Source of the DNA: Acholeplasma laidlawii
GTDB lineage: Bacteria; Bacillota_I; Bacilli_A; Acholeplasmatales; Acholeplasmataceae
Length of the DNA: 48,635 nucleotides
Direction of reading: 5' to 3'
Assembly (NCBI RefSeq): GCF_015709225.1
Contig: NZ_JADNRS010000003.1
Location: 1 to 48,635, forward strand
The notes beneath the pieces were generated by a model that saw only the letters and a program-made list of their open reading frames with translations, made no database searches and was not told where the DNA came from. Below, piece by piece: positions 3 to 48,492 of the stretch. Every line of letters begins with the position of its first letter. Position 1 is the first letter of the stretch. The position numbers and the translations under genes were made by a program.

Positions 3-527
3 AGTTATTCAGAATCCTTCAAACATAAAGTGATAGAAGCCTATAGAAATGGTGAAGGTGGTTATAGTGATCTGGCAGTCAAATATAAGATAAGTAATTA
101 TGCATTAATTGCAAGATGGGTATTAGGGTATAATAATATTAAAACTACTCATAGTGGATCAGGTGGTGTCAATATTATGGCCAAAAAAACATGCTTAGAT
201 GAAAGAATTGAAATTGTTGAATATTTAATTAAGCACGAGCTTGATTATCAAGGGACCGCCCTAAAGTTCAATGTCAACTATCAACAAGTCTATACTTGGT
301 ACAAAAAGTATCAATCCTTTGGTGTTAATGGACTTCATGATAAACGTGGTCGAAAAAAAGAACCTCAGGAACTATCTGAGATTGAACAATTAAGACGTGA
401 GAACGAAAGACTCAAAAAGGAATTACATTTAAGCGAGGCAGCCAAAGAAGTTTTCAAAAAAAAACAAGAATTGGAGGCAAGAGCCCACTTAACAAGGTTA
501 GGAACCAAGAAACATACGAAACAATAG
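3..527 (+). CDS. IS3-family transposase OrfA, 5' end cut by the window edge
   Basis: DNA-binding half of an IS3-type transposase. The protein shows two helix-turn-helix-like segments: one near the N-terminus (YSDLAVKYKISNYALIARWV) and one around residues 70-95 of the visible frame. A Leu/Glu/Lys-rich coiled coil follows (ELSEIEQLRRENERLKKEL), as expected for OrfA multimerisation. A GTG at 30 could be read as a start, but codons from base 3 onward continue in frame and read SYSESFKHK, the usual OrfA N-terminus, so the true start is upstream of the window. The 3' part contains a nine-A run, after which the -1 frame continues as OrfB. Family assignment is firm; the exact IS name is not known. 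Confidence 0.88.
   Translation, partial: SYSESFKHKVIEAYRNGEGGYSDLAVKYKISNYALIARWVLGYNNIKTTHSGSGGVNIMAKKTCLDERIEIVEYLIKHELDYQGTALKFNVNYQQVYTWYKKYQSFGVNGLHDKRGRKKEPQELSEIEQLRRENERLKKELHLSEAAKEVFKKKQELEARAHLTRLGTKKHTKQ
456..464 (+). other. A9 slippery site for -1 programmed frameshift, OrfA to OrfB
   Basis: Nine consecutive A residues are read as three Lys codons in the OrfA frame. A -1 slip enters the frame that runs open to 1366 and encodes OrfB. This is the standard expression mode of IS3-family transposases. No clear downstream stimulatory hairpin was identified. Confidence 0.75.
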
Positions 528-1366
528 ATTACTTTAAAGATGTTTATGATATCAAATGGCTCTGTGAACTACTAGGCATCGCCAGATCATCATACTATAA
601 ATGGTCAAACAGAATCAAACCTGCATATGAAATAAAGAATGAAGAAACACTAGAAACCATACAAACCTACTATACCCATTTTAAAAAGCGATATGGCTAT
701 AGACGTATTAGAGATAACATCAACTTGTATACTGGGACAAATCATTCTGATAACTATATTTATCGTTTAATGCGTGCCTATAACCTAAAATCTATTATCC
801 GTCGTAAACGTCCAGGTTTCGTTAAAACAAAACCCGAACAAATTGGTGAAAATAAACTAAATAGAGTATTCACTGCATCTAATCCAAATGAGAAATGGTT
901 AAGTGATGTCACAGAATTTAAATATGGCTATGCAGGTCAAAAACTGTATTTATGTGCGATATTAGACTTATATGATAATAGTATAGTCGCTTATCATATA
1001 CATCATAGAAATGATAATCATCTGGTTTTTACAACTTTAAAAAAAACTGTAAAAAACAATCCTAATACGCACCCAATGTTTCATAGTGATCGGGGATATC
1101 AATACACGAGTAGAGCATTTAAAAGTCTATTAGATAAACACAATATTGTGCAAAGTATGTCTAGAGTAGGTAAGTGTATTGATAACGGACCAATTGAAAA
1201 TTTATGGGGCATCATCAAATCTGAAATGTATTATTTAGAAACTTTTGATACATCTGAAAAACTCACAAAAGCAATTGATGATTACATTAGATTCTATAAT
1301 GAAGCAAGAATTCAACGCAAATTAAAAAGCCATACACCTTTAGAATATAGGCATATGGCTATCTAA
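458..1366 (+). CDS. IS3-family transposase OrfB (DDE integrase), made as an OrfAB fusion
   Basis: Catalytic half of the transposase. The frame is open from the A9 run and reads IDYFKDVYDIKWLCELLGI, then YGYRRI, the typical N-terminal region of IS150-group OrfB. The rve core follows, with the first Asp in WLSDVTEF, the second in FHSDRGYQY, and the Glu in IDNGPIENLWG. The protein ends in the usual YNEARIQRKLKSHTPLEYR motif. A TTG at 725 could start a short form, but it would lack the conserved N-terminal region, so a frameshift fusion is much more likely. No internal stop is present. About 300 codons, normal for the family. Confidence 0.88.
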   Translation, partial: KKTRIGGKSPLNKVRNQETYETIDYFKDVYDIKWLCELLGIARSSYYKWSNRIKPAYEIKNEETLETIQTYYTHFKKRYGYRRIRDNINLYTGTNHSDNYIYRLMRAYNLKSIIRRKRPGFVKTKPEQIGENKLNRVFTASNPNEKWLSDVTEFKYGYAGQKLYLCAILDLYDNSIVAYHIHHRNDNHLVFTTLKKTVKNNPNTHPMFHSDRGYQYTSRAFKSLLDKHNIVQSMSRVGKCIDNGPIENLWGIIKSEMYYLETFDTSEKLTKAIDDYIRFYNEARIQRKLKSHTPLEYRHMAI

Positions 1367-39666: not shown

Positions 39667-41310
39667 ATGGCAATTTTATTTAACGATTTACCAATATTAG
39701 ATACAACAAAAGTAGCATTAGAAAAATTAGGTTTTACTGAAGCTACACCAATACAGGAACAAGCAATTCCAAAGATGATTTTAGGTTTAGACTTAATCGG
39801 TCAAGCTCAAACAGGAACAGGAAAGACATTTGCTTTTGGCATACCGATGGTCGAAAAAACTGATACATCCTTAAGACAAACTCAAGGTTTAATTTTAACT
39901 CCAACTAGAGAATTAACAAATCAAGTATACAAAGAAATTATTAAATTAGTTAAGTTTTACCCAGAATTAAGAGTTACAACCATCGTTGGTGGTGAGTCCT
40001 ATGAAAAACAATTCAAGGAATTAGACAGAAAACCACATATCATTGTTGCAACACCAGGTCGTATTATTGATCATATCGATCGTGGTACAGTGGATTTATC
40101 ACACATTACAACACTTACATTAGATGAAGCTGATGAAATGTTAAAAATGGGTTTCCAAGATGATATCGAACGCATTTTACAAACAACACCAGAAACACGT
40201 CAAACTGTATTATTTTCTGCAACAATGCCAGCATTTATTAAAAAGATAGCTAAAAACTATCAAAAAAATCCTGAGCTTATTAAAATTGAAGCAAAAAGTT
40301 TAACAGTTGATCGTATTTCTCAAGCTTACTTCTTAGTTAAAGAAAAAGAAAAACAAAGTTTATTAGAACGTCTATTAGATTATGAAAACCCATCAACTGC
40401 AATTATTTTTGTGAATACAAAAGCAGGTGCTGATAGAATTACTGAAAGTTTACAAAAAGCAGGATTTACTGCTGATGCACTACATGGTGACTTAAAACAA
40501 TCACAACGTACATACGTTATGAACCGTTTTAGAAGTAAACAACTATCTATCTTAGTAGCAACAGACGTTGCAGCTAGAGGGTTAGACGTTGATGATGTTG
40601 AAGTTATTGTAAACTATGATTTACCTCAACAAGATGAAATCTATGTTCACCGTATTGGCCGTACAGGTCGTGCCGGTAAAAAAGGTAAAGCATTCACATT
40701 TGTTACACCACTTAAACGTCGTATGTTAGATATGTTAGCTCACTACACTAAAGCTGATATTAAACGCTTAGAAGTACCAACTGCTGATGATGTTTACAAA
40801 GAACAACTTAAAACATTCAAACATAAAATTAAAACTGAACTAGCAAATGAATATCCAAACCATTTAGAAGCTATTAAAGAATTATTAGTGGATGAAGGTT
40901 CTAAGGATCAATTATTAAATTACTTACTAGACAGCATGCTACCTTCTAAGAAAACTTATGAAACAATTGAAATCATTCCTGAAAAAGCACCAAGAAGAAG
41001 TCAAGGTGAAAGAGGAAATGATAAAGGTAGAAGAGATTCAAGATCATCAAGAGATGGTTCACCAGCACGTGGTAGCGGTCAATATGTTGACTTCACCCTA
41101 AATATTGGTAAAGCAGATGGTTTAACACCTCCTACACTATTTAAATTCATGGAAAAAGAATATGGCATCTTCTCTAAAAATATTGGAGACATTAGACATA
41201 ATAAAAATGAAACAGTATTTGGTCTTAGAAAAGATTCTGTAAGACGTCTTAATGCAAATAAAGAAGTGAATTACAAAGGTAGAAAAGTAGTTATCAAAAC
41301 ATTAAACTAA
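39667..41310 (+). CDS. DEAD-box RNA helicase (CshA/DbpA-like)
   Basis: ATP-dependent RNA helicase for ribosome assembly, RNA decay or cold adaptation. Motifs in order: Q motif PIQEQAIP, I AQTGTGKT, Ia PTRELT, Ib TPGRI, II DEAD in LDEADEM, III SAT, IV IIFVNT, V ATDVAARGLD, VI HRIGRTGRAGKKG. After the helicase core a Ser/Arg/Gly-rich linker (about 445-475) leads to a DbpA-type RNA-binding domain (YVDFTLNIGKADGLTPPTLF). Length of 547 residues is normal. The unit has its own promoter and terminator. Confidence 0.95.
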   Translation: MAILFNDLPILDTTKVALEKLGFTEATPIQEQAIPKMILGLDLIGQAQTGTGKTFAFGIPMVEKTDTSLRQTQGLILTPTRELTNQVYKEIIKLVKFYPELRVTTIVGGESYEKQFKELDRKPHIIVATPGRIIDHIDRGTVDLSHITTLTLDEADEMLKMGFQDDIERILQTTPETRQTVLFSATMPAFIKKIAKNYQKNPELIKIEAKSLTVDRISQAYFLVKEKEKQSLLERLLDYENPSTAIIFVNTKAGADRITESLQKAGFTADALHGDLKQSQRTYVMNRFRSKQLSILVATDVAARGLDVDDVEVIVNYDLPQQDEIYVHRIGRTGRAGKKGKAFTFVTPLKRRMLDMLAHYTKADIKRLEVPTADDVYKEQLKTFKHKIKTELANEYPNHLEAIKELLVDEGSKDQLLNYLLDSMLPSKKTYETIEIIPEKAPRRSQGERGNDKGRRDSRSSRDGSPARGSGQYVDFTLNIGKADGLTPPTLFKFMEKEYGIFSKNIGDIRHNKNETVFGLRKDSVRRLNANKEVNYKGRKVVIKTLN

Positions 41311-41333
41311 ATAGCACATTCGTGCTATTTTTT
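41309..41333 (+). terminator. Terminator of the DEAD-box helicase gene
   Basis: AAATAGCAC/GTGCTATTT stem with ATTC loop, followed by TTT. Confidence 0.9.
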
Positions 41334-41490: not shown

Positions 41491-41521
41491 AAGTTAGAAA
41501 AGGCAATAGGAGGATTTAGTC

Positions 41522-42895
41522 TTGCATCTATTTGATAACATCCCAGATACACTATTTAATGTCTTATCTTCTCCAAACAAACATATATATGTAGACTGTC
41601 TGTTTATCATATATGATGCCACCAACTCAATTGAAAATGCGTTTCAAGGTGAACGAGGCTATGTGATTGATAAGCTAGTTGACTATTTTGATGAACTTAA
41701 AGAAGAGTTTCAGATGGGGGATAGTGAAGTCACAACTTCACGTCAAAAGTCTGTTTCTGTCATTAATATATTGAAGCAAAATGGTTGGTTAGGTGAGGAA
41801 GAACTAGGGGATTATAAAACGTCATTAAATTTATTTGATTACTCCATAAAAATCATTGATTTACTAAAAAGAATTCAAACGGGTGAAGAAAACGAGTATA
41901 CCGGTGAAATCTACACCGTGTACTCTCTTTTGTCATCTTTTGATATTATTGATGGTTTAACCATTGTAGAACAAGCATATCAAAAAATTGAAGATGTCTT
42001 AAGAAAACTAAAAACATTAAAAGCAAACATCTATCGTTTCTACTTTGATTTAGTTAAAAAGGATAGAAAAGATGATTTACAAAAAGTTTTAGAAAAACTT
42101 CTTATAGACTATAAAACAAACTTCTTTGATAGTGCATACTACCATTTAAAGACCACAGATTCACTACCAAGATATAAACGTAGTATTTTAGAAAATATAT
42201 CCTATATTTACCAAAATGAAGGTTATATGGAAACCATGGCTGAACAAGCACTTACTAAAAGAAAAGCACTTCAATATAATGATGCTTATAACTATGTAGA
42301 AGAGCGTATTCGTTATATAAAAGATTCTATAGATGCCATTGAGTATTTAATCGAAGGTATTGATAATAAAAACGAATTATATATCAATGCTGCTGCATCT
42401 AAAATTATGTTTTTAACTAATACATCTGAAGATTTAGAAGGCTTAATGAATCGTTTATTTAAAATCATTTTAAGTGATAAAAAGGTAGATTACAGTCAAA
42501 TATTTAACCTTTTTAGAGCTAGAAACTTAGATGAAAACTCGCTTCAAACAGTTAGAAGGCCAAGAGTTGATGCCGTTGCAGAGGAAATTGACTATAACCA
42601 AGATATCTCTGATGAGGTTAAGGAACGTAAGATGGCAAGCTTACTTAAGGCAAACTTGTTTTCTAAAAAAGAAATTAACAACTATGTCACTTACCTACTA
42701 GGTGATGCACCAAAGATATTAGCAAGTCATATCGAATTAGAATCAAATGATGATTTTGTTAAACTGATCTTAATCTTCTTATTTAGTAAATCAACAGGTA
42801 TGGTTTACGATGTTAGATTATTAAATTATGATACGAGAATTGGACATATTAAATTTACTGATTTTGAAATCTTTGTTAAAGGAAAAAGCTTATGA
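41522..42895 (+). CDS. JetA-like (MksF-like, DUF5716-type) SMC kleisin subunit
   Basis: First gene of a three-gene SMC-like operon. The N-terminus LFDNIPDTLFNVLSSPNKHIYVDCLFIIYDA matches the start of Firmicute Wadjet JetA-type proteins (DUF5716), the kleisin of the complex. The middle is helical with charged segments, suitable for a kleisin linker. There are no catalytic motifs. Length of 457 residues is usual. The start is TTG with AGGAGG at 8 nt. Its TGA overlaps the next ATG by 4 nt. Recognition is from memory of the family, moderately firm because order and partners also fit. Confidence 0.8.
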   Translation: MHLFDNIPDTLFNVLSSPNKHIYVDCLFIIYDATNSIENAFQGERGYVIDKLVDYFDELKEEFQMGDSEVTTSRQKSVSVINILKQNGWLGEEELGDYKTSLNLFDYSIKIIDLLKRIQTGEENEYTGEIYTVYSLLSSFDIIDGLTIVEQAYQKIEDVLRKLKTLKANIYRFYFDLVKKDRKDDLQKVLEKLLIDYKTNFFDSAYYHLKTTDSLPRYKRSILENISYIYQNEGYMETMAEQALTKRKALQYNDAYNYVEERIRYIKDSIDAIEYLIEGIDNKNELYINAAASKIMFLTNTSEDLEGLMNRLFKIILSDKKVDYSQIFNLFRARNLDENSLQTVRRPRVDAVAEEIDYNQDISDEVKERKMASLLKANLFSKKEINNYVTYLLGDAPKILASHIELESNDDFVKLILIFLFSKSTGMVYDVRLLNYDTRIGHIKFTDFEIFVKGKSL

Positions 42896-43530
42896 TGAAC
42901 AAAAACCAAGCAATAAAAAAACTAAGTGAAGAGTTTGTAGTATTAAAAGAAGCAGAAAAAACTGTTTTTTCTAGAATTGTAAACAAATTACTTCAAGTGA
43001 ACTTCATCACTAGAAAAAAGATTGCTGATGCAAATGATTACCGTTTTGTATTAGCGTATAAGGAAATATTTGAAGCCTATTTTTGTTTATCAGATTTTGA
43101 ACTCATTATTGAGCGCCATGAAGAAGTTTTATATATCAAAAATATATCAAACTTCAATCACTTAAGACTTAGAAAAGCTGAAAGTATTTTATTACTTATT
43201 ATTAGAATGTTATATCAATCCAAGATGGATGTAATCACACTGGATGAAAACGTTGAAATATACTTAAGTGAGGTTCATGATGAACTCACTAAAGTAGGTT
43301 ATCTAGATAATAAACGTATGACTAAGGAGACATTGAAACCTAGTCTTCAATTATTAAAAGGTTACAACATCATTGATTATATGGATAGTAAATTAAATGA
43401 CGATGCTAGAATTAAAATATATCCAACAATTTTATATGTTATTAGAACAGACAGTATTAAAGAATTATTAGATCACATAGATGACTATGTTAAAGGGGGT
43501 AATGTAAATGAAGAAATTGACGAAGATTAA
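42892..43530 (+). CDS. JetB-like (MksE-like, DUF4194) SMC accessory subunit
   Basis: Winged-helix accessory (KITE-type) subunit that binds the kleisin. The helical N-terminus FVVLKEAEKTVFSRIVNKLLQVNFI, the beta segment LIIERHEEVLYIKNI and the LRLRKAESILLLIIRMLY helix are the DUF4194 pattern. Length of 212 residues is typical. It overlaps jetA-like by 4 nt and the ATPase gene by 23 nt, so all three are translationally coupled and probably made in fixed ratio. Confidence 0.82.
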   Translation: MMNKNQAIKKLSEEFVVLKEAEKTVFSRIVNKLLQVNFITRKKIADANDYRFVLAYKEIFEAYFCLSDFELIIERHEEVLYIKNISNFNHLRLRKAESILLLIIRMLYQSKMDVITLDENVEIYLSEVHDELTKVGYLDNKRMTKETLKPSLQLLKGYNIIDYMDSKLNDDARIKIYPTILYVIRTDSIKELLDHIDDYVKGGNVNEEIDED

Positions 43531-46500
43531 ACTTATTAACTGGCATTTATTTACAGACCAAACCATTAAAATAGATGGTAATACATTAATCTCTGGTGAA
43601 AATGGTGCTGGTAAATCAACACTACTTGACGCCCTACAATATCTATTAGTCGGTGGAAGATCTGGTGCTAAATTTAATATTGCAGCAACTGATGATGCCA
43701 AACGTACCCTTGAAGGTTACGTTCGTGGTCGTATTGGTGCTGAAAATAAAGAATTCATCCGTTCAGGCGATGTCATTACGCATGTTGCACTAGAGTTTTA
43801 TGATGAACAAAGTGATGAATTTGGTATTATTGGTGCAGTCCTAGAGTTACCTAAAATGGGTAACTTAAAAGAAAGATTTTATTTACTAGAAAACCTAAAT
43901 ATTCATGATGGTATTTTTATGGATAAAAATACGCCAAGAGATTACCGCTCCATGAAGGCATATTTAAAAACATTATCCATTGATTTTATGCCGTTTGACT
44001 CACAACGCCAATACCGTGATGCTCTTGCTAAATACTTTGGTATTGATGCTAAAAAGTACTCAAAAATATTACCTAAAGCTCTTGCTTTTAGACCAATCGA
44101 CTTACAGTCATTTGTTTTTGAGTTTTTATTAGATGATGAACCAATTGATATTCAAAGTCTAAAAAATAACGTGACCCAACTTAAACGTGTTGAAGGTCAA
44201 ATTCGTTTAGATAAAGAAAAATTAGAAAAATTAGAAAAAATTATTACTTTGGGCGAGTCTCTTAATCAAAACCTAGATCAAATTACGACCAATGAGTTAA
44301 TTGATCAAATGGCATTCATTGAAAAAAGAGAGACCTTTTTAAGCCATTCAGAAAATCTACTTGATAAAGTCAATGCTAAGTATGAAGTACTTAAACGTCA
44401 AAAAGATGATTTAGATAGACAAATAACATCGAATGATGAAACGATTTTAGAACTTGAAACATCACGTCAAAATGATGATATCACGCGTACCCTTTCAAAC
44501 CTAAAAGAACAGTTACATACCAAAGGTAACCAGTATAATGAACAAAAAGAAATCGTAAGTGATTTAAAATCAACCTTAAATAGAGAACTTGATCTATATA
44601 GAGACTTTGTGAATTTAAATCCAAATACACATATCTCTGCATTCTTAAAATATTATTCTAGTCACGAAGAAAACTCAAACATCTTAGAATTAAGCAGCTA
44701 CATTGAAGGTGCACAATCTGCAGCTAGTGGTTATTTAAATGCTTTAAGTGTAGAAAAATCTGAACTTGAAAAAGAAAGAGGTAATATCTTAAATGAATTA
44801 AGAATTGCTGAAAACAGGTTAAATGCATTAAAGAGAAATGTTAAAACATATCCTAGAAATGTTCAATCATTAATGGATGCTATTAATACAGAACTATCAA
44901 ACTATTATAAAAAAGATGTACGTGTGCGTGCTTTTTCAGATTTAATTGAAGTTAAAGATGAAGCATGGCGTGATGCATTAGAAGGTTACCTAAATACAAG
45001 ACGTTTTGACTTGATTATTGATCCACTATACTTTAATGATGCACTTGAAGTCTATGACCGTGTTAAAAATGAATTATCTATTTACGGTGTAGGGTTAGTC
45101 AATACATCTAAAATTGGTGAATACACAACACATTTACCAAATTCACTTGCTGCTAAAGTAACAACAGATCATCCTTATGCTAGAAACTATGTCAACATGA
45201 CCATGGGTTATGTTGTCACAGTTGATAATTTAAGTGATTTAAAAAATCATCAAAGATCAATTACTAAGTCTGCAATGACTTATGCTAACCACACAGCAAG
45301 ACAAATCAATCCAAGTCAATATCAAGTACCTTACATTGGTAATTCATCTACACATCTTCAAGTAGAGATGGATACAAAGTTAGTAGGTGAACTGACAAGT
45401 GAACTTAAACGTGTATCTAATTTACTTGAAAAAAATCAAATGTCCTTGAGATTATTACAACAATCTAAACTGACTCATATTGTATCTTCAAATCAAATTA
45501 GATACTTTGATAATATTAAACAAACAAGAAAAGAATACATTGAACTAGAACAAAAAGTAGCGAATTTATCAAGTAATCCTAAGATTGCTGAATTAGAGTC
45601 ACAACTTGATGAAGAGCGTAACAAGAAACGTCAACTACGTCTGGATTTTGAAAAGTTAGCTGATCAAATGGCTGATTTACGTAGTGAAAAAACACGTATT
45701 CTTGAACAAATTGAAGAATCACGTGATGCATTATCCAATTATCTAAAGGAACAAAAAGAGTGGAATCAAAAATATCCAACACTTTTACCGATAGCATATA
45801 ACCAGTTTAATGCATTAAAAGTGAGATATCAGTCAAATTATGACTTGATTTCTAGAGATTTAGCGCAATCTACAATTCAAATTAAATCTCAAAATGCACG
45901 TGCAGAAGCTGATGTTGTAAACTTAATGCGTGCATATATTACAAACTATCACTTTGGTGCTGCACCAGATCTATCAGAGCTCATTGAATTTGAAAAAGAG
46001 TTTGTCTTAATTAAAGACAATAATTTAATGAAGTATGAACAAGAAGCAATTGACTTAAGAAAAGCTTCTGAAACCGGATTTAGAGAAGAATTTGTAGGTA
46101 AACTAAGAGCATCGATTGAAGCCGCTCAAATTCAAATTGCAGAACTTAACCAAGCCTTAACTGGAAAGCACTTTGGTACGGACAGTTATGAACTTGTTAC
46201 AAAACCATCAGAGAATCCAGAGTTTAGAACTTACTATGATATCATTATGGACTCTGATGCGGTAGCTAAACATACCTTATTTACAGAAAACCTATCTAAA
46301 CGTAAAGAAATTATATTAATGGAGTTATTTAATAAGATTGCTTCATTTGATCCTGAAAATGATAAATTTGCATTACAATTTTTAGATTACCGTTATTACA
46401 TGAGTTATGATATTGAAGTCACAAACGAAAATGGTAACAAATCATACTTTAGTAAGGTAAGTAAAGAAAAATCCGGTGGTGAGACCCAAGTACCATTCTA

Positions 46501-46774
46501 TATTGTTATTGCAGCAAGTTTCCAACAACTATTAAGTAAGAACAAACGTATTGATGCTGGTTGTATGGTATTATTTGACGAAGCATTTAACAACATGGAT
46601 GAGTCTAGAATTGATGCGATGATGAAGTTCTATAACTCATTAAGTATTCAATTATTTATCGCAGTTCCACCTCAAAGAGTAAGTAATATTGTAAACTATG
46701 TAACAACATCACTAGCGATAGTTAAAGATAACGATTTTGCAATTGTAGAGGCATTTAAAAGAGAGGTTATTTAA
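43508..46774 (+). CDS. JetC-like (MksB/MukB-like) SMC ATPase
   Basis: Large SMC-family ATPase expected to extrude or capture DNA loops. The N-terminal head has KLTKIKLINWHLFTDQTIKI and Walker A GENGAGKST at residues 30-38. Two coiled-coil arms (about 215-350 and 640-780) flank a hinge-like region (about 450-590, ALEGYLNTRRFDLIIDP). The C-terminal head has signature KSGGE at residues 988-992 and Walker B VLFDEAF with Asp1024 and Glu1025. Length of 1088 residues fits JetC. All ATPase motifs are intact. The adjacent JetD nuclease gene found in Wadjet systems is missing. Confidence 0.88.
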   Translation: MKKLTKIKLINWHLFTDQTIKIDGNTLISGENGAGKSTLLDALQYLLVGGRSGAKFNIAATDDAKRTLEGYVRGRIGAENKEFIRSGDVITHVALEFYDEQSDEFGIIGAVLELPKMGNLKERFYLLENLNIHDGIFMDKNTPRDYRSMKAYLKTLSIDFMPFDSQRQYRDALAKYFGIDAKKYSKILPKALAFRPIDLQSFVFEFLLDDEPIDIQSLKNNVTQLKRVEGQIRLDKEKLEKLEKIITLGESLNQNLDQITTNELIDQMAFIEKRETFLSHSENLLDKVNAKYEVLKRQKDDLDRQITSNDETILELETSRQNDDITRTLSNLKEQLHTKGNQYNEQKEIVSDLKSTLNRELDLYRDFVNLNPNTHISAFLKYYSSHEENSNILELSSYIEGAQSAASGYLNALSVEKSELEKERGNILNELRIAENRLNALKRNVKTYPRNVQSLMDAINTELSNYYKKDVRVRAFSDLIEVKDEAWRDALEGYLNTRRFDLIIDPLYFNDALEVYDRVKNELSIYGVGLVNTSKIGEYTTHLPNSLAAKVTTDHPYARNYVNMTMGYVVTVDNLSDLKNHQRSITKSAMTYANHTARQINPSQYQVPYIGNSSTHLQVEMDTKLVGELTSELKRVSNLLEKNQMSLRLLQQSKLTHIVSSNQIRYFDNIKQTRKEYIELEQKVANLSSNPKIAELESQLDEERNKKRQLRLDFEKLADQMADLRSEKTRILEQIEESRDALSNYLKEQKEWNQKYPTLLPIAYNQFNALKVRYQSNYDLISRDLAQSTIQIKSQNARAEADVVNLMRAYITNYHFGAAPDLSELIEFEKEFVLIKDNNLMKYEQEAIDLRKASETGFREEFVGKLRASIEAAQIQIAELNQALTGKHFGTDSYELVTKPSENPEFRTYYDIIMDSDAVAKHTLFTENLSKRKEIILMELFNKIASFDPENDKFALQFLDYRYYMSYDIEVTNENGNKSYFSKVSKEKSGGETQVPFYIVIAASFQQLLSKNKRIDAGCMVLFDEAFNNMDESRIDAMMKFYNSLSIQLFIAVPPQRVSNIVNYVTTSLAIVKDNDFAIVEAFKREVI

Positions 46775-46779
46775 CCCTA

Positions 46780-48492
46780 ATGACAAAACTTAAAGGTAAT
46801 GGTGTATCCAGTGGTATAGCAATTGCTAAGGTACATCAATTCAAACTAAATAACATGTTTGCAATGAATAAGTATGCAACCGACAAAGCGTTTGAAATCA
46901 AACGCTTAGGGGATGCACTTTATAAGGCAGATAAGGAACTTGAAAATCTAACCAAACAAGCTGAAGAAAGAATTGGGGATGAACATGCCCAAATCTTTAG
47001 AGCACAGCAAATGATGATTAAAGACCCTGAAATGATAAAAAATGCGCATGTTAAAATAAATGACTTTAATCTAGATGCTGCCTACGCATTTAAGCAAACC
47101 ATGAGTGAAATGATTGATTTGTTTGAGTTAAGTGATAATCCATACATTAAGGAACGTATCTCTGATTTAGAAGATATTTCAAACAGAGTATTACATATTT
47201 TAAGTGGAAAAACGCATAGTCTTTATGTATTTAATGAAGATGTGATACTTGTAGCAACTGATTTAGTCCCTTCAGAAACAATCAATTTAGACACAACTTT
47301 TATTAAAGGTATTGTCATTGAAAAAGGATCTAAAACAAGTCACTCAGCAATTCTTGCTAGAAATTTAGGTATTCCTGCAATTACTGGTGTTGATGTAAGT
47401 AAAATACATCACGACACACTTGCAATCATTGATGGACACACAGGGGATATTTTATTAGAACCTAGTGAAGATACCATCAAAACATACCAAACTAAACAGC
47501 AAGAAGCACTTAAATTACAATCAACGTATGAAACAATAAAAGACCTTAAAACAGCAACCATAGACCATCATGAAGTCCATTTAGCTGCAAACATTGGTGT
47601 TGATCTAGACATTCAAGAAGCACTAGATGCTAATGCTTCAGGTATTGGTTTATTACGTACAGAAAACCAGTATTTAGAATCTGATGATTTTCCAACCGAA
47701 GATGAACTATTTATCTTCTATGAAAAGGTAGCAACATCATTTGAAACTAATGAAGTCACTATTAGAACGCTTGATATTGGTGGCGATAAAAACTTAAGTT
47801 ACCTCAATATGCGTAAAGAATTAAACCCATTTTTAGGTAATAGAGCAATCAGATATAGCCTAAGTTATCCATCATTATTTAAAACTCAACTTCGTGCTAT
47901 CTTACGTGCTAATAAACATCAAAATATTAAAGTCATGTTTCCAATGATTTCTACTTTAAAAGAACTCATGGATGCGAAGAAGATACTAGATGAAACCTAT
48001 CAAGCATTAAAGATTGAAGGACATGAAGTAAATTATCCAAAAATTGGTATGATGGTTGAAGTACCATCCGCTGCACTTGGTATAGAAAAGTTTTTACCAC
48101 ATATTGACTTCATCAGTATTGGAACCAATGATCTGATTCAATACATGTTTGCAGCAGATAGAATGAATGAACGTGTAGCATATCTTTATCAACCATATAA
48201 TCCAATTTTATTGTCCACCATTAAATCTATGATTGACAAGGCTAATAAGCATGGTATAATAGTTAGCGTGTGCGGTGAAATGGCTGGCCATAAAGCTCAA
48301 AGTTTACTACTTATTGGCTTAGGTATCAAACATTTAAGCATGCATGCAAACTTAATTTTAGAAAACAAATACTTGATTTCTAAAACAACTTATAAGGCAC
48401 TAGAAGAAATTGCCGAAAAAGCATTATTACTAGATTACCCTTACGAAGTTGAAGCACTTATAAATACATATATTAAAGGACTTAAAAATTAA
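46780..48492 (+). CDS. ptsI: PTS enzyme I (phosphoenolpyruvate-protein phosphotransferase)
   Basis: Transfers phosphate from PEP to HPr, the first step of all PTS sugar uptake. The phosphorylated residue is His188 in GSKTSHSAILARNLGIPA. The PEP-binding half has LLRTENQYLE, RTLDIGGDKNLSYL, FISIGTNDLIQYMFAADR and the active Cys in VCGEMAGH. Length of 570 residues is normal. It starts 5 nt after the SMC ATPase stop with GAGAGG about 12 nt upstream of the ATG; no separate promoter or terminator lies between. ptsH is not adjacent. Co-transcription with an SMC operon is unusual. Confidence 0.96.
   Translation: MTKLKGNGVSSGIAIAKVHQFKLNNMFAMNKYATDKAFEIKRLGDALYKADKELENLTKQAEERIGDEHAQIFRAQQMMIKDPEMIKNAHVKINDFNLDAAYAFKQTMSEMIDLFELSDNPYIKERISDLEDISNRVLHILSGKTHSLYVFNEDVILVATDLVPSETINLDTTFIKGIVIEKGSKTSHSAILARNLGIPAITGVDVSKIHHDTLAIIDGHTGDILLEPSEDTIKTYQTKQQEALKLQSTYETIKDLKTATIDHHEVHLAANIGVDLDIQEALDANASGIGLLRTENQYLESDDFPTEDELFIFYEKVATSFETNEVTIRTLDIGGDKNLSYLNMRKELNPFLGNRAIRYSLSYPSLFKTQLRAILRANKHQNIKVMFPMISTLKELMDAKKILDETYQALKIEGHEVNYPKIGMMVEVPSAALGIEKFLPHIDFISIGTNDLIQYMFAADRMNERVAYLYQPYNPILLSTIKSMIDKANKHGIIVSVCGEMAGHKAQSLLLIGLGIKHLSMHANLILENKYLISKTTYKALEEIAEKALLLDYPYEVEALINTYIKGLKN

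What the first reader, a model, noticed from the sequence alone, without database searches (positions are those of the whole stretch)
41522..46774. Intact JetABC/MksFEB-like SMC operon without the JetD nuclease
Three coupled genes match Wadjet subunits JetA, JetB and JetC in order, size and motifs, and the ATPase has intact Walker A, signature and Walker B. In Wadjet defence systems a fourth gene, JetD (Toprim-containing), cuts the trapped plasmid. Here the next gene is ptsI and no JetD-like frame exists in the window. The complex may work as a chromosome-organising SMC, may use a nuclease encoded elsewhere, or may inhibit plasmids without cutting. In a small mollicute-like genome this is a striking investment of over 5 kb.
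Basis: partly seen in the sequence, partly recalled or inferred. Interest (0 to 1): 0.68.

Follow-up and report, generated by a model that had tools for sequence, protein, structure and literature searches.

The report
Nuclease-free Wadjet complex as Acholeplasma condensin
A three-gene machine known from bacterial anti-plasmid defence is present here without its DNA-cutting part, and across Acholeplasma, its relatives and many phytoplasmas it is the only chromosome-organising (SMC) complex we could find, so it has probably taken over folding and segregating the chromosome.

Summary
Window 41522-46774 holds intact, coupled jetA-jetB-jetC (type I Wadjet / MksFEB) with all three ATPase motifs and no jetD. 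No jetD exists elsewhere in the 99.7%-complete genome by two different profiles. The pattern is not local. In 88 genomes of the family, JetA is found in 68 and a JetD in one; that one, in strain MO-XQ, lies beside a second, separate jetABC. The same 88 genomes have no ScpA, and their few weak SMC-hinge hits fall in JetC. jetABC is therefore the only detectable SMC complex in Acholeplasma and its relatives. It is vertically inherited, nearly always single-copy, and under stronger purifying selection than its neighbours cshA and ptsI. In phytoplasmas jetA has separated from jetBC, yet they are almost always kept or lost together. Over 296 genomes of the class, JetA without JetD sits almost only in lineages lacking SMC-ScpAB. 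Best explanation: a nuclease-free Wadjet/MksBEF complex serving as chromosomal condensin in place of SMC-ScpAB (confidence about 0.7; function inferred, not shown). MksBEF acting as a condensin is known in Pseudomonas. I found no paper describing this clade-wide substitution, though key papers were not available to read.

The parts
41309..41330 (+). intrinsic-terminator-like hairpin after cshA, separating cshA from the jetABC-ptsI unit
   Evidence: 9-pair stem plus T-run; 0.0 expected in shuffles
41508..41513 (+). ribosome-binding site AGGAGG for the TTG start of jetA
   Evidence: sequence
41522..42895 (+). jetA / mksF: kleisin subunit, 457 aa
   Evidence: PADLOC JetA1 3.2e-94; Pfam PF18982 JetA 6.7e-77; best structure match E. 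coli Wadjet 8q72_E, with MukBEF chains lower (low-confidence model)
42892..43530 (+). jetB / mksE: KITE subunit, 212 aa
   Evidence: PADLOC JetB1 8.3e-69; Pfam DUF4194 1.2e-31, MksE 1.1e-6
43508..46774 (+). jetC / mksB: SMC ATPase subunit, 1088 aa; Walker A GENGAGKST, signature KSGGETQ, Walker B VLFDEA intact
   Evidence: PADLOC JetC1 E=0 over 1-1086; motifs; profile matches solved type I JetC, then MukB
46780..48492 (+). ptsI (PTS enzyme I), 5 nt after jetC, probably co-transcribed; occupies the place where jetD would follow
   Evidence: the same neighbour in all genus-level loci examined

Best explanation
jetABC encodes a kleisin-KITE-SMC ATPase complex of the type I Wadjet/MksBEF kind that lost (or never had) the JetD nuclease and serves as the chromosomal condensin of Acholeplasmataceae, in place of SMC-ScpAB. 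Inferred working: JetC dimers joined by JetA and JetB load on the chromosome, use ATP to extrude loops, and so compact and separate sister chromosomes. Without JetD, an encounter with a small circular DNA does not end in cleavage. Shown here: gene content, intact ATPase motifs, absence of JetD, absence of SMC hinge and ScpA, vertical inheritance, strong purifying selection, coordinated retention or loss of subunits. Inferred: complex formation, loop extrusion, and the chromosome-segregation role.
For: JetA in 68/88 family genomes, ScpA in 0/88, SMC hinge only as weak hits inside JetC frames, JetD in 1/88 by two profiles. Outside phytoplasmas and one genus (g14), JetA or JetC occurs in 53/54 genomes: core-gene, not defence-like, distribution. 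Class level (296 genomes): 71 of 81 JetA-positive genomes lack ScpA and only 4 of those have a JetD; of the 10 that have SMC-ScpAB, 6 carry JetD beside JetC (Fisher test). MO-XQ (G022) holds both a JetD-less core copy and a JetD-bearing Wadjet, in different parts of the JetC tree. Core JetC of the family including phytoplasmas forms one clade, 99% SH-aLRT. dN/dS 0.02-0.04 against G005, lower than cshA 0.064 and ptsI 0.114. Phytoplasmas: jetA unlinked from jetBC but agreeing on presence/absence in 27/29 genomes, distance correlation 0.97. P. [quoted passage not shown]
Against: No functional data. About 30% of class genomes have neither ScpA nor JetA by these profiles, and ten phytoplasmas have neither JetA nor JetC, so some relatives seem to live without any detectable condensin; being the only SMC complex does not prove that it does a condensin's job. 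ScpB was not searched.
Confidence: 0.7

Rival explanations
1. JetABC still works against plasmids, without cutting: by loop-extruding small circles it silences, compacts or mis-segregates them.
For: Close sequence kinship to Wadjet type I. JetABC is described as the shape sensor and JetD as the effector (PMC10586767).
Against: Near-universal, vertically inherited core distribution and dN/dS below neighbouring housekeeping genes, unlike patchy defence systems. The review reports all four subunits needed for plasmid suppression in B. subtilis (PMC10586767). Retained in phytoplasmas with 0.5-0.8 Mb genomes.
Confidence: 0.1
2. It is an ordinary Wadjet whose nuclease is encoded elsewhere, or is an unrelated nuclease recruited in trans.
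For: Only that subunits can be unlinked, as jetA is from jetBC in phytoplasmas.
Against: Pfam JetD_C at E<=10 and a clade-specific JetD profile at E<=1 find nothing in the genome; over the family they find only the JetD of MO-XQ, while the Pfam model also finds JetD in other families of the class.
Confidence: 0.05
3. JetABC has a chromosomal role other than global condensation, such as replication-fork, repair or transcription-linked DNA tethering, and these cells have no condensin at all.
For: Ten phytoplasmas and genus g14 lack JetA and JetC and show no SMC or ScpA, so life without a condensin appears possible in this family.
Against: The losses are in reduced, host-dependent or incomplete genomes; other members of the family keep it almost without exception (53/54).
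Confidence: 0.13
4. Decaying remnant of a Wadjet system that lost jetD.
For: Absence of jetD alone.
Against: Intact frames and motifs in nearly all full-length family copies examined; dN/dS 0.02-0.04.
Confidence: 0.02

Closest known systems
Wadjet type I (JetABCD)
   Same: JetA, JetB and JetC profile membership, gene order A-B-C, overlapping genes, ATPase motifs
   Different: No JetD nuclease; core-genome distribution; stands in place of SMC-ScpAB instead of accompanying it; next gene is ptsI (Acholeplasma) or a C1-like peptidase (most other genera)
MksBEF of Pseudomonas aeruginosa
   Same: Three-subunit MukBEF-like complex; documented chromosome-segregation role there (PMC7485682); [quoted passage not shown]
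   Different: P. aeruginosa also has SMC-ScpAB; here it is the only SMC complex detected, and it belongs to the type I JetABC sequence family
MukBEF of E. coli
   Same: A single kleisin-KITE-SMC complex standing in for SMC-ScpAB in a whole lineage
   Different: JetC is 1088 aa against 1482 for MukB, distant sequence
Complete Wadjet of strain MO-XQ (CP017948, locus L103)
   Same: Homologous JetABC in the same family of bacteria
   Different: Has JetD and a distant JetC, and lies in the same genome as a JetD-less core copy (L104)

Membership tests
Wadjet type I (JetABCD) defence system | JetA, JetB, JetC homologues in order | tested here: met
Wadjet type I (JetABCD) defence system | JetD Toprim nuclease present | tested here: not met
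   none in the genome, 1/88 in the family (beside a separate copy)
Wadjet type I (JetABCD) defence system | Restricts small circular plasmids | not testable with these tools
   needs a transformation assay
MksBEF condensins | kleisin MksF, KITE MksE, MukB-like SMC in one operon, no nuclease required | tested here: met
   (MksE PF21980 1.1e-6)
MksBEF condensins | intact SMC ATPase motifs | tested here: met
MksBEF condensins | contributes to chromosome organisation or segregation | not testable with these tools
   inferred from absence of SMC-ScpAB and housekeeping-like conservation
SMC-ScpAB | canonical SMC hinge (PF06470) and ScpA (PF02616) | tested here: not met
   own genome none; family 0/88 ScpA
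MukBEF | MukB of about 1480 aa with MukB N-terminal domain | tested here: not met
   MukB PF04310 below cut-off (21.6 against 23 bits); length 1088 against 1482

The most novel reading that the evidence does not exclude
A whole bacterial family (Acholeplasma, relatives and many phytoplasmas), and probably several sister families, have discarded SMC-ScpAB and run their chromosomes with a defanged anti-plasmid complex; the takeover happened more than once in the class, so the defence-to-housekeeping path proposed for MukBEF/MksBEF is a recurrent evolutionary route.
Probability: 0.4. Interest if true: 0.8.

Novelty: new variant of a known kind. Interest (0 to 1): 0.64.

Why it matters
It would give a natural, clade-wide case in which an immune-type SMC complex has replaced the usual bacterial condensin, and a tractable host (A. 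laidlawii, if G005, whose JetC is 98% identical, is that species) to test how a plasmid-sensing motor is made safe for chromosomes. It also offers an answer to what segregates chromosomes in many phytoplasmas, for which the known partitioning repertoire was described as sparse (PMC3322544), and warns that 'Wadjet' calls made from JetABC alone may be housekeeping genes.

Tried and rejected
Single-sequence phmmer of JetA and JetB against the PDB found no relatives; profile and fold searches did better. AlphaFold models were of low confidence (pLDDT 65-67) and are used only as weak support. I looked for loss of the JetD-contacting JetB N-terminus ('IFDR' motif of PMC10586767): the N-terminus is too divergent to align and the result is inconclusive. 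The idea that the gene after jetC in other genera might be a replacement nuclease was rejected: it is a C1-like peptidase (PF03051), and in Acholeplasma it is ptsI. The first impression that phytoplasmas keep only JetA was wrong: jetBC lie elsewhere in the genome. JetC relatives on plasmids and phages are few and distant (21 plasmid and 2 phage records, all under 60% identity), so there is no sign that the operon is a mobile-element gene here. No promoter could be called: matches not above chance. The 2011 MksBEF survey (PMC3179180) and two 2022 Molecular Cell Wadjet papers were not available.

Full report
OBSERVATION. The window carries three overlapping genes on the + strand: 41522-42895, 42892-43530 and 43508-46774. 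They match PADLOC JetA1, JetB1 and JetC1 at 3e-94, 8e-69 and E=0 over nearly their full lengths, and Pfam JetA, DUF4194/MksE and SbcC_Walker_B. Walker A, signature and Walker B are intact and nearly invariant among family members. jetA starts with TTG behind AGGAGG, jetA/jetB overlap by 4 nt, jetB/jetC by 23 nt, and ptsI begins 5 nt after jetC. A terminator-like hairpin at 41309-41330 separates the upstream DEAD-box helicase gene.

NO NUCLEASE. The Pfam JetD C-terminal model finds nothing in the genome at E<=10 (genome 1.33 Mb, completeness 99.67%). A profile built from ten JetDs of the same class finds nothing at E<=1. Over the 88 genomes held for the family, both find exactly one JetD, in G022. 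G022's contig has the length of the record behind locus L034, CP017948.1 (Tenericutes bacterium MO-XQ). There jetD follows a second jetABC (L103), while the ordinary jetABC of the same chromosome (L104) has none. In the loci where the flank could be read, jetC is followed by ptsI in Acholeplasma or, in nearly all other genera, by a C1-like peptidase.

NO OTHER SMC COMPLEX. JetA is found in 68 of 88 family genomes, and JetC in four more that lack a JetA hit. ScpA is found in none of the 88, although the same model rings in 9 of 14 control genomes, including B. subtilis. The canonical SMC hinge gives only seven weak hits (E about 1e-4 to 1e-5), in frames of 878-1113 aa, six of them beside a jetA and the seventh inside the JetC of G070. 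The SbcC Walker B model hits only JetC in the window's genome. Leaving out phytoplasmas (g11) and one genus (g14), JetA or JetC is present in 53 of 54 genomes: the distribution of a core gene, not of a defence system.

CLASS LEVEL. In 296 genomes of the class, ScpA is found in 135, JetA in 81, JetD in 21, and the SMC hinge in 138, of which four are weak hits like those in JetC. Only ten JetA-positive genomes, in two families (f10, f15), also have ScpA. In those ten, six have JetD directly beside JetC and two more have a weak or distant hit. Of the 71 JetA-positive genomes without ScpA, four have a JetD, two of them beside a second JetA copy. Fisher tests are significant (p about 1e-4 on the conservative count), with the caveat that genomes of one clade are not independent. 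About 88 class genomes have neither complex by these profiles, so absence of a detectable condensin is not unusual in this class; this weakens the argument from uniqueness and was not followed up.

VERTICAL INHERITANCE AND CONSTRAINT. In a tree of 70 JetC proteins the JetD-less JetC of the family forms one clade (SH-aLRT 99) with phytoplasmas as one branch. The JetD-bearing copies of MO-XQ and G206 fall outside it, and other SMC-less families form further groups (f3/f21/f22; f9/f19; f5), with JetD-bearing copies between them. This fits more than one takeover, but it is a quick tree with some long branches. Against G005, dN/dS is 0.022, 0.025 and 0.037 for jetA, jetB and jetC; cshA and ptsI next door give 0.064 and 0.114, and in more distant species the Jet proteins also change less than these neighbours. 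The upstream helicase gene is kept in most genera.

PHYTOPLASMAS. Genus g11 is Candidatus Phytoplasma: contigs of 750,803, 769,143 and 635,584 bases are the published lengths of 'Ca. P. ziziphi' Jwb-nky, 'Ca. P. luffae' NCHU2019 and a third complete phytoplasma. Here jetB and jetC stay together while jetA lies elsewhere. Of 29 genomes, 17 have both JetA and JetC, 10 have neither, and the two discordant ones are incomplete drafts. JetA and JetC distances correlate at 0.97 even though the genes are unlinked. Motifs are intact in at least nine of the ten JetCs examined; the Walker A pattern was not matched in L164. A review of phytoplasma genomes calls the chromosome-partitioning repertoire sparse and doubts the annotated 'smc' genes (PMC3322544). 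The mobile-unit 'smc' genes (PMC6148798) carry no SMC hinge.

MECHANISM. Established for relatives: JetABC is a loop-extruding DNA motor and JetD the nuclease it activates; MksBEF of P. [quoted passage not shown] PMC7485682). The simplest account here is the same step taken further: the JetD-less complex is the only condensin. Shown: gene content, absence of the alternatives, conservation. Inferred: assembly, loop extrusion, segregation role.

COMPARISON AND NOVELTY. By sequence it belongs to the JetABC/MksBEF family. It is not a Wadjet defence system in the full sense, because JetD was tested for and is absent. Single MksBEF condensins have been mentioned elsewhere (PMC10197239: B. longum and T. 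muris have a distant MksBEF; [quoted passage not shown] In the open library I found no statement that Acholeplasmatales or phytoplasmas lack SMC-ScpAB and carry this complex, but the 2011 MksBEF survey and the 2022 Wadjet papers could not be read. Hence: new variant of a known kind. The identity of G005 with A. laidlawii PG-8A rests on my memory of its genome length (1,496,992 bases) and was not confirmed.

Noticed in passing
L090-L102 (jetA) and L161-L170 (jetBC), phytoplasma genomes: jetA has split from jetBC in phytoplasmas, yet JetA and JetC agree on presence/absence in 27 of 29 genomes; ten phytoplasmas (several of them single-contig) have neither JetA nor JetC and no detectable SMC or ScpA.
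   Followed up: partly
class-level search: About 88 of 296 genomes of the class have neither ScpA/SMC hinge nor JetA: possible condensin-free lineages, or complexes too divergent for these profiles.
   Followed up: no
L103 and L104 (G022, CP017948): One chromosome (MO-XQ) carries both a JetD-less core jetABC and a complete, distantly related jetABCD: a natural side-by-side comparison.
   Followed up: partly
L105 (G077): A second, divergent jetABC at a contig end, alongside the core copy in the same genome; whether a jetD follows cannot be seen.
   Followed up: no
L166:1918-2436 (G073): A fragmented, degenerate partial second copy of jetC about 1.1 kb downstream of the intact one in a phytoplasma.
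   Followed up: no
window 3-1366: Two adjacent transposase-like frames (helix-turn-helix orfA, integrase-core orfB) at the contig start, resembling an IS3-type element; judged by eye only.
   Followed up: no
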